50,902 bases of DNA, taken from contig CANSFI010000011.1 of NCBI GenBank assembly GCA_947646095.1, positions 1 to 50,902 of the forward strand. Reading direction: 5' to 3'. This stretch comes from an uncultured Mycoplasmatota bacterium. GTDB taxonomy: Bacteria > Bacillota_I > Bacilli_A > RF39 > UBA660. A program made the position numbers and the translations under genes. The notes below the pieces were generated by a model. It ran no database searches. It had not been told where the DNA came from and saw only the letters and a list, made by a program, of their open reading frames with translations. How positions within the stretch are numbered: position 1 is the first letter of the stretch; each line of letters opens with the position of its first letter. This document shows, piece by piece, positions 5,861 through 16,835 of this stretch.

Positions 5861-6214
5861 AATATTTTATAAGCCATGTTCTGTACCTAATATAATAGGC
5901 GACAAACATTTATCTATTGCTTTTAAAGCAATCCCATAAAAGATTCTGATTCTCTTTTACTAGGTTCCCCTACCAAAATTTGGGTTTCTCACTCGTGGGG
6001 TTTACCGCGTTCCATACTATTTATTTCTAAATAGATCGTCTCTATGGCACTTTATGCCTATAACCATATCATATGACTTAGGTTAATTGGCGCCGTTAGT
6101 TAAAAACTACTACAGGTTATTTTTTCCCTGTACACGAACACTAAAGTCATCACAGACTTTGTGAGCATGGACTTTCCTCTACATTATTATAAATGCAGCG
6201 TTTGTCAAAATATT
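5861..6214 (-). ncRNA. rnpB: RNase P RNA (bacterial type B-like)
   Basis: Catalytic RNA that matures tRNA 5' ends. On the minus strand the conserved parts appear in order: GTAGAGGAAAGTCCATGCTC near 6165-6188, TAGTGTTCGTG, GGAACGCGGTAAACCCC, GAGAAACCCAAATTTTGG, GTAGGGGAACCT, and ACAGAACATGGCTTA near the 3' end. AATATTTT near 6214 pairs with AAAATATT near 5861, closing helix P1 and setting the ends. It lies directly after gpsB, the same order as B. subtilis gpsB-rnpB. The ends are estimated to within a few bases. Confidence 0.95.
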
Positions 6215-15600: not shown

Positions 15601-16272
15601 TTAAAAATTTCTATCATAATAAATTATATTTTCCTCATTACCTACTAAAGATAAAGCATAATTATATAAACTATCTTCTTTTGCTTTATCATCATTTATT
15701 AATTTTATATTGTCTATATTTGTTAAAAGACAAGTCCCATCTTTAAATTTTAGTTGTATTTTATCATCTTCATCATAATCTGTCCAAGTATCTAATTCTA
15801 CTATAATTGCGGTATTATCTGATAAAATAATAGCTTTGTTATATGTATAATTTAAATCTAAAATATCTTTATTCCATAAATCATCAGAGGTATTAATATA
15901 AACCCCTTGCATTTCATTATAATCTTTTACCTTTTCTTCATCATTACCAGCAAGCATTAATGCATAATTATATATTGAATTTGAACTATTAGTTTTTATT
16001 AACTCAGTTTGATGTGTACTTGTTAGTACCTTTAATCCATCTTCAGTAATAAATTGTTCTTGGTCACCAGAATAATCAGCATATGTTTCAATTGCAACTA
16101 TAGAAACATATCCATTATTTGGTTCTATTGCAACATTAAATGATTTATCAAAATCAAACATTTGCTTATTTCCACATCCAGTCATAGTACTTAATGTGAT
16201 TGCCCCTGCCAAAATTAAAGAAACTCCTTTTTTTGTAATTTTAAATTTCTTATTTTCATAATTAACTAACAT
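15601..16272 (-). CDS. Putative lipoprotein with two similar repeats, function unknown
   Basis: A 223-residue secreted lipoprotein: a basic N-terminus, a hydrophobic stretch (SLILAGAITLSTMTGC) and a lipobox Cys after MTG. The mature part has two copies of a related module; compare SIYNYALMLAGNDEEK with SLYNYALSLVGNEENI, each preceded by an acidic, Tyr/Asp-rich strand region. I recognise no family. An upstream in-frame ATG at 16341 lacks a ribosome-binding site and would spoil the signal peptide, so the ATG at 16272 (MLVNYENKK) is used. A hairpin at 16286-16305 lies just before it. Confidence 0.65.
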   Translation of the reverse strand: MLVNYENKKFKITKKGVSLILAGAITLSTMTGCGNKQMFDFDKSFNVAIEPNNGYVSIVAIETYADYSGDQEQFITEDGLKVLTSTHQTELIKTNSSNSIYNYALMLAGNDEEKVKDYNEMQGVYINTSDDLWNKDILDLNYTYNKAIILSDNTAIIVELDTWTDYDEDDKIQLKFKDGTCLLTNIDNIKLINDDKAKEDSLYNYALSLVGNEENIIYYDRNF

Positions 16273-16285
16273 TCCTTTCTTTCGT

Positions 16286-16305
16286 CCTTTCAGTCCTCTG
16301 AAAGG
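16286..16305 (-). promoter_or_regulatory. Hairpin in the 5' leader of the lipoprotein gene
   Basis: On the minus strand CCTTTCAG, loop AGGA, CTGAAAGG: a perfect 8-bp stem ending 13 bases before the start codon. The purine-rich stretch after the hairpin (GACGAAAGAAAGGA) contains the Shine-Dalgarno. It could affect translation, but this is not shown. Confidence 0.4.
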
Positions 16306-16326
16306 CACAAATTGGATTGAAAAAAT

Positions 16327-16354
16327 TTGACTTTTTTGCATTTTTGTTTATAAT
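16327..16354 (+). promoter_or_regulatory. Sigma-A-type promoter facing the structured RNA
   Basis: TTGACT (16327-16332), 16-base spacer, TATAAT (16349-16354). Predicted transcription start is about 16360, exactly at the first paired base of the RNA's closing stem. No protein gene follows on this strand. Confidence 0.6.
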
Positions 16355-16358
16355 AACA

Positions 16359-16559
16359 GTTCGTTGCAGGTACACTACAGAGCACGGCGAGGTGAGTGGT
16401 GTTAAAGTATAACTTTAAACCCGTATAATTATATGTGTCGATTATTCCTGGTGTACAAATGAGTGTTGCCTTTATTGAGCACGGAACCTTATCTATGTTA
16501 AAACATTAATCGTTTTTTAGTTTAGGAATTTTCAGTCAATGCCTCAACAAACTATTATT
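16359..16559 (+). ncRNA. Candidate structured non-coding RNA, class not recognised
   Basis: About 200 bases with noticeably higher GC than the AT-rich flanks and no ORF. GTTCGTTG-CAGG (16359-16370) pairs with CCTCAACAAAC (16542-16552), one bulge, closing the element. Inside, GTACAC..CAG (16370-16380) pairs with CTG-GTGTAC (16448-16456), capped by TTAAAG/CTTTAA (16402-16417). GAGCACGG occurs twice, about 97 bases apart (near 16379 and 16477). A good promoter ends just upstream on this strand; a TATAAT also precedes the element on the minus strand, with no good -35, so direction is not certain. Length and long closing stem resemble 6S RNA or a large leader RNA, but I do not recognise conserved blocks of 6S, tmRNA, SRP RNA or a known riboswitch. 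Confidence 0.45.
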
Positions 16560-16835
16560 TGAATTGTTATTATACATCTTAAATTTTGCGTTTTTTCACA
16601 AAATATTTTTTGCGTTCTTATTTAGTCAATATTTTTTTCAACCTTAAAACCTCACTTTAAAATCATGTATAATATTTTAACATAAATATATTAAAAATAA
16701 AAATTATTGAATCAAATTTAATCATTTCAATAATTTTCTTAGATTATATAACATTTTCATTTATAGAATCAAATTATTTTTTTAATCTTTGATAAATTAA
16801 TTATCTATTTTTTGGTCATTTATAATATGTATTTA
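16560..16835. other. AT-rich intergenic stretch, nothing clear
   Basis: Between the RNA candidate and the zinc-ribbon gene there is no supported ORF. A TATAAT near 16670 and a weak ATTTTG/CAAAAT hairpin near 16602 are the only signals seen. Confidence 0.5.

What the first reader, a model, noticed from the sequence alone, without database searches (positions are those of the whole stretch)
16352..16559. Possible new structured RNA of about 200 bases in an AT-rich gap
GTTCGTTG-CAGG and CCTCAACAAAC close a stem over ~190 bases; internal arms GTACAC..CAG/CTG-GTGTAC and TTAAAG/CTTTAA also pair; GAGCACGG is repeated ~97 bases apart. A TTGACT-N16-TATAAT promoter puts the start at the first stem base. 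The region is GC-richer than its surroundings and has no ORF. I do not recognise 6S, tmRNA, SRP or a known riboswitch.
Basis: partly seen in the sequence, partly recalled or inferred. Interest (0 to 1): 0.75.

Follow-up and report, generated by a model that had tools for sequence, protein, structure and literature searches.

The report
Bridge-RNA mini-transposon lacking its own transposase
The structured RNA is real. It is the guide ("bridge") RNA of an IS110-type jumping gene, carried here by a 377-base element that has lost its transposase; many near-identical copies sit at other gene starts in related gut bacteria, nearly all with a guide that fits the copy's own insertion site.

Summary
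The RNA is real, but it is not a free-standing new class. It is the bridge RNA (seekRNA) of an IS110-family element. A 75%-identical copy in the same genome lies directly upstream of an IS110 transposase, and the complete IS110 relatives carry it there. In the window it sits inside a compact element (about 16269-16645) with both IS110 ends and no transposase. At least 19 such solo elements (372-396 bp where complete) were found in 17 genomes of this family. Some are 98-99.7% identical at different genes in different genera, and one has an empty-site counterpart.

The closing stem and two inner stems show compensatory changes. The RNA carries four guides. One copies the insertion-side start codon plus spacer (192/200 nt matched in 40 elements; shuffled 122). 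One equals a Shine-Dalgarno sequence, complementary to the opposite flank. Two match the element's own ends, and the one tested covaries with the right end. So the element inserts between Shine-Dalgarno and start codon, as IS900 does. I infer it is moved in trans by a related IS110 recombinase. Rfam has no match, and I found no description of transposase-less bridge-RNA elements in the papers searched. Transcription, recombinase binding and present-day mobility are untested.

The parts
16269..16645 (+). Whole solo element (377 bp): left end, promoter, bridge RNA, 3' tail, right end; no transposase. Exact ends uncertain by a few bases
   Evidence: Ends defined by alignment with 15 other solo elements of 372-396 bp and with IS110 relatives; empty site for the relative in G383
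16257..16264 (+). Left flank CATAATTA (complement of a start codon plus spacer of the divergent gene): target half matched by the 3' target guide
16269..16279 (+). Left end ACATTCCTTTC; on the other strand GAAAGGAATGT, which can act as a replacement Shine-Dalgarno for the divergent gene (inference)
   Evidence: Conserved in most subfamily-A elements; pairs with the 5' donor guide
16282..16304 (-). Leader hairpin CTTTCAGAGGACTGAAAGGACGA, part of the left end
   Evidence: Only one match in the window; in this genome found only here and at the IS110 copy on contig C8
16327..16354 (+). Sigma-70-like promoter TTGACT-N16-TATAAT
   Evidence: transcription not tested
16360..16550 (+). Bridge RNA (approximate ends)
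16363..16548 (+). Closing helix P1: GUUG-c-AGGU with GCCUCAAC
   Evidence: 4 of 8 pairs with changes on both sides, 98.4% of cells paired
16389..16394 (+). 5' target guide GAGGTG (same as a Shine-Dalgarno; complementary to the right flank)
   Evidence: 28 of 31 right flanks hold a Shine-Dalgarno complement, background 11.6%
16402..16418 (+). Apical helix P3 of the target loop, TTAAAG/CTTTAA
   Evidence: 4 of 8 pairs with changes on both sides
16424..16431 (+). 3' target guide TATAATTA (same as the left flank CATAATTA, one U-G wobble)
   Evidence: 40 elements: 192/200 nt matched, shuffled 121.6 +/- 6.0, 0 of 20000
16440..16530 (+). Helix P5 at the base of the donor loop, GATTATTCCT with AGGAATTTTC (arms approximate)
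   Evidence: 5 of 8 pairs with changes on both sides
16461..16466 (+). 5' donor guide GAGTGT, complementary to left end ACATTC (one G-U)
   Evidence: Read; in L058 AGUGG faces CCATT. Not tested statistically
16485..16490 (+). 3' donor guide AACCTT, same as right end CAACCTT
   Evidence: Across 15 entries 87/90 nt, 13/15 exact; shuffled 64.5 and 2.4, 0 of 50000
16583..16611 (+). AT-rich hairpin ATTTTG-G...C-CAAAAT followed by a T run; possible terminator
   Evidence: Conserved in solo elements; the terminator scan, which needs 3 G-C pairs, did not call it
16639..16645 (+). Right end CAACCTT
   Evidence: Same end in the complete subfamily-A IS110 relatives and in the solos with a complete right end; decayed in L006
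16646..16655 (+). Right flank AAAACCTCAC = complement of the Shine-Dalgarno GTGAGG displaced from the divergent gene

Best explanation
Shown by comparison: the feature is the bridge RNA of an IS110-family element, inside a 377-bp derivative that keeps both ends but has no transposase. The RNA has a closing stem, a target loop with two guides (GAGGUG, and YAU plus about five bases) and a donor loop with two guides (GAGUGU and AACCUU). The guides fit the element's own ends and its own insertion site, which lies between the Shine-Dalgarno and the start codon of a gene. Such solo elements arose at least twice and have spread among genera. Inferred: an IS110 recombinase made by an autonomous relative binds this RNA, excises the element as a circle, and recombines the circle into a new translation-start site chosen by the RNA. 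The inserted left end brings a GAAAGGA sequence that may replace the lost Shine-Dalgarno and so soften the damage to the gene.
For: A homologous RNA lies directly upstream of an IS110 transposase in the same genome and in the complete IS110 relatives. Both ends match those IS110s. Solo elements with the right end 143-149 nt after the RNA model and no transposase occur in many genomes. Target guides covary with insertion sites, one donor guide covaries with the right end, and right flanks are Shine-Dalgarno complements. Stems show compensatory changes, also within the solo group. Empty sites: G001 for the IS110 at ssb and G103 for the solo in G383. Solos are 99.7% identical at different genes in different genera, and 98.9% identical at two sites of one genome. 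A subfamily recombinase is present in 5 of the 17 solo-bearing genomes. Bridge RNA in trans and mini-elements moved in trans are published (PMC11208160, PMC11187229).
Against: No expression, binding or transposition data. In 9 of the 17 genomes with a solo no transposase match was found, and three more hold only a distant or marginal one; these are draft assemblies. Guide order is the reverse of IS621. The exact core dinucleotide could not be fixed. No other copy of the solo element was found in the window's own genome, so this particular copy may be stranded.
Confidence: 0.87

Rival explanations
1. Dead remnant: each solo copy is an IS110 that lost its transposase after insertion and no longer moves.
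For: Nine of the 17 genomes with a solo show no transposase match; L085 and L099 show a real internal deletion of a transposase gene.
Against: Solos share one compact layout and right tail and cluster into few groups on the tree, not scattered. Near-identical solos sit at different genes, one next to an empty orthologous site. Guides differ between solos together with their sites.
Confidence: 0.08
2. Independent host small RNA with its own regulatory role that an IS110 later captured.
For: Promoter-like site, conserved fold, location at gene starts; its target guide is by construction complementary to the mRNA start region of the adjacent gene.
Against: Neighbouring genes are unrelated from copy to copy. 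The RNA comes with IS110 ends, and its donor guide tracks those ends.
Confidence: 0.03
3. Both: a mobile bridge RNA that after insertion also acts as an antisense regulator of the gene it sits beside.
For: The 3' target guide UAUAAUUA is complementary to UAAUUAUG of the adjacent reading frame.
Against: Complementarity follows from target choice alone; only about 8 bases; no expression data.
Confidence: 0.07

Closest known systems
IS621 / IS110 bridge RNA (Durrant et al. 2024, PMC11208160)
   Same: Non-coding RNA of about 180 nt in the left end upstream of the recombinase; two loops, each with two guides, for target and donor; guides covary with target and donor
   Different: A closing stem P1 spans the whole RNA here; guide order is reversed relative to the transposase strand; no transposase in this copy; no Rfam match
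IS1111/IS110 seekRNA (Siddiquee et al. 2024, PMC11187229)
   Same: Natural retargeting; the order 'top-strand complement first' described for IS1111 fits here; mini-elements movable in trans in their assays
   Different: Here that order occurs with the RNA upstream of the transposase, as in IS110; the solo element is a natural one
IS900 of Mycobacterium avium subsp. paratuberculosis (IS110 family)
   Same: Target motif CATGNNNNNNTCTCCTT (PMC8141618): start codon on one side, Shine-Dalgarno complement on the other
   Different: Different organisms and ends; I did not compare its RNA
Bacterial MITEs, e.g. the Coxiella MITEs that give rise to sRNAs (PMC5896051) and MITECca01 from IS982 (PMC9769881)
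   Same: Short, transposase-less, thought to derive from an IS; some give rise to sRNAs
   Different: No terminal inverted repeats at the ends read here; the RNA is the targeting guide itself

Membership tests
IS110-family bridge RNA | Encoded in the non-coding end next to an IS110 DEDD recombinase | tested here: met
   Met for homologues; the window copy itself has no recombinase
IS110-family bridge RNA | Target-binding guides match both halves of the insertion site | tested here: met
   empty sites
IS110-family bridge RNA | Donor-binding guides match the element's own ends | tested here: met
   for the right end; the left-end guide was only read by eye
IS110-family bridge RNA | Conserved secondary structure with two internal loops | tested here: met
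   the basal helix of the target loop (helix 2) and the apical helix of the donor loop (helix 5) have no pair with double changes
IS110-family bridge RNA | Guide order as in IS621 (left guide first) | tested here: not met
   5' guides pair with the right side in both loops; this order varies between IS1111 and IS110 (PMC11187229), so I do not take it as defining for the family as a whole
IS110-family bridge RNA | Binds the recombinase and is required for recombination | not testable with these tools
   Needs biochemistry
MITE (miniature inverted-repeat element) | Short, no transposase, ends shared with an autonomous relative | tested here: met
MITE (miniature inverted-repeat element) | Terminal inverted repeats | tested here: not met
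   Ends ACATTCC... and ...CAACCTT are not inverted repeats of each other, so it is not filed as a MITE
IS900-like target choice | Insertion between start codon and Shine-Dalgarno | tested here: met
   motif from PMC8141618

The most novel reading that the evidence does not exclude
Bridge-RNA-only elements are a natural, actively spreading class: they parasitise the recombinase of IS110s, change their own guides, and because their target guide is complementary to the start region of the gene they land beside, they may also control that gene as antisense RNAs.
Probability: 0.1. Interest if true: 0.8.

Novelty: new variant of a known kind. Interest (0 to 1): 0.66.

Why it matters
Bridge RNAs were described in 2024 as part of autonomous IS110 elements. 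Natural elements that keep only the RNA and the two ends would show that the guide and the enzyme can separate in evolution, and would supply a ready natural test of recombinase use in trans. The set also gives dozens of guide/site pairs for a subfamily that targets translation starts, and suggests an explanation in RNA terms for the observation that IS900-like elements insert between Shine-Dalgarno and start codon.

Tried and rejected
Rfam, both thresholds: nothing. Single-sequence folding: not distinguishing. The idea that the leader hairpin at 16282-16304 is a repeated host leader or the target: rejected, it occurs only at the two elements in this genome. GTACAC/GTGTAC arm: not kept, broken by eye in relatives. 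Homologue of the window's lipoprotein gene, to find the empty site of this very copy: none good enough. Plasmid, phage and viral collections: no match. A first tree with 10 solos gave one solo clade; with 19 solos at least two origins are needed, so a single origin is rejected. Published IS110 MITEs: none found in the searched library.

Full report
What was claimed. The letters are as described, the promoter-like site is there, no ORF covers it and Rfam has no match. Folding energy alone would not have proved it (z = -0.39).

How it was identified. Searching the same genome gave a second, 75%-identical copy on contig C8. It lies directly upstream of, and on the same strand as, a 417-residue ORF with Pfam DEDD_Tnp_IS110 (1.5e-24) and Transposase_20 (4.2e-17). 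Relatives of this transposase carry the same RNA upstream, and those of the same subfamily end in the same right end, TTTTCAACCTT or nearly so. The window has both: left end ACATTCCTTTC from 16269 and right end CAACCTT to 16645. It has no transposase between them. The window feature is therefore a 377-bp solo element.

More copies. A covariance model of the RNA found 38 places in 30 of 386 genomes of the family. A second draw (385 genomes, overlapping the first) gave matches in 42. Counting a locus as solo if the right end lies 143-149 nt after the RNA model with no transposase, or if it is a clear sister with a decayed or cut right end, there are 19 in 17 genomes. L005 ends at a contig end, L006 has a decayed right end, and the left end of L150 was not found. 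Lengths of the 16 aligned complete ones are 372-396 bp. Identity reaches 99.7% between solos in different genera at different genes (L074 and L151) and 98.9% between two sites of one genome (L151 and L152). In the genus coded g75 three copies at three genes are 98-99% identical. On the tree the solo label needs three changes, with two forced by well-supported branches: the transposase was lost at least twice, once close to the autonomous element of G422.

Structure. On 16 sequences (8 solo, 8 autonomous) the model has a closing helix P1, a target loop with basal helix CAC/GUG and apical helix GG..UUAAAG/CUUUAA..CC, and a donor loop with basal helix GA..AUUCCU/AGGAAU..UC and a short apical helix. 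95.2% of cells pair, 13 pairs have changes on both sides, and the covariation score is 0.329 (shuffled 0.193 +/- 0.013; slid versions 0.068-0.120). Compensatory changes also occur among the solos alone, for example A-U to G-C at columns 51/62 and G-C to A-U at 52/61, as expected if the RNA stayed in use after the transposase was lost. I drew the model with these sequences in view, so the slid controls favour it somewhat.

Guides. In the RNA the stretch YAU plus five bases equals CAU plus five bases of the left flank: 192 of 200 positions in 40 elements against 121.6 +/- 6.0 after shuffling (0 of 20000), and for distinct pairs 83 against 52 (0 of 20000). The window itself has UAUAAUUA and CATAATTA. 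The other target guide is GAGGUG or a variant such as GGGGUG, GAGGGG or AGGAGG. Its counterpart, the right flank, holds a Shine-Dalgarno complement in 28 of 31 elements (background 11.6%, p about 2e-23). The donor guide AACCUU equals the right end; in other subfamilies both change together (AGACTA, AGATTA, AGGTTA, AAACTA, ACACTA): 87 of 90 positions, 13 of 15 exact, shuffled 64.5 and 2.4. All subfamily-A elements except L006 enter that test as one row. The second donor guide GAGUGU faces the left end ACATTC; this was seen by eye only.

Insertion site. In G001 (same genus) the rpsF-ssb junction is empty, GAGGTGTATTTATG, whereas in the window's genome the IS110 lies between GAGGTGT and TATTTATG. 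For a solo element, G103 has the empty site TTTTTCATTTTTTTCATCCTCTTTTC where G383 has the element between CATTTTT and CTAATCCTC. Target genes vary widely, among them (my reading of the sequences) ssb, clpP, ileS, clpB and ksgA. This is the target type reported for IS900, CATGNNNNNNTCTCCTT (PMC8141618). The left end reads GAAAGGAATGT toward the gene, so it can stand in for the lost Shine-Dalgarno; that is an inference.

Mechanism. By the published scheme for IS621 (PMC11208160) the recombinase, the RNA, the target and the circular donor junction are brought together by the two loops. Experiments there and in PMC11187229 show that the RNA, or recombinase and RNA, can act in trans. A solo element that keeps its RNA and ends should need only a foreign recombinase. 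Of the 17 genomes with a solo, five hold a subfamily-A recombinase (G000, G066, G472, G499, G422; the one found in G472 is a partial ORF), nine show no match, two hold only a more distant one (G206, G078) and one a marginal match (G409). All are draft assemblies. The step 'moved in trans' is inferred, not shown.

Order of guides. In both loops the 5' guide pairs with the right side and the 3' guide equals the left side. PMC11187229 describes 'top strand complement first' for IS1111 and the reverse for IS110. Here the IS1111-like order goes with an upstream RNA as in IS110. This is a difference from IS621; because the order is known to vary in the wider family, I do not take it as a reason to deny that this is a bridge RNA.

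Limits. Copies within a subfamily are related, so shuffles overstate independence; the count of distinct guide/flank pairs (18) is the safer figure. The exact crossover dinucleotide is not settled. The library searched holds open-licence papers only, so absence of a report of such elements is weak evidence. No transcript or protein data were available.

Noticed in passing
window 5865-6213 (-): Bacterial RNase P RNA, class B (Rfam RF00011, 289 bits).
   Followed up: no
window 15601-16281 (-): The lipoprotein-like ORF beside the element is not in frame with the nearest ATG (16257-16259 complement); its in-frame ATG (16270-16272 complement) lies inside the element's left end. Either the start is now supplied by the element or there is a one-base frameshift near the start.
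   Followed up: partly
L002 1400-3071 (G000 contig C8): A complete IS110 with the same RNA sits inside the rpsF-ssb-rpsR operon, between the ssb Shine-Dalgarno and its start codon.
   Followed up: yes
L100 (G000 contig C1): A degenerate IS110 of the second subfamily (RNA kept, transposase broken into several frames) upstream of what looks like a glycosyltransferase gene.
   Followed up: partly
L012 1429-2658 (G000 contig C8): Another, more distant IS110-family transposase with a different upstream region; its bridge RNA was not examined.
   Followed up: no
L152 and L149 (G472, G491): Two solo copies carry guide UAUUUUUA but sit at CATATTTA, one mismatch; in G472 a near-identical copy sits at a matching site. 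Possibly off-target insertion, the raw material for retargeting.
   Followed up: partly
window 16346-16357: The -10 region GTTTATAATAAC is nearly symmetrical (GTTATTATAAAC on the other strand), so it might fire in both directions and also drive the adjacent gene.
   Followed up: no
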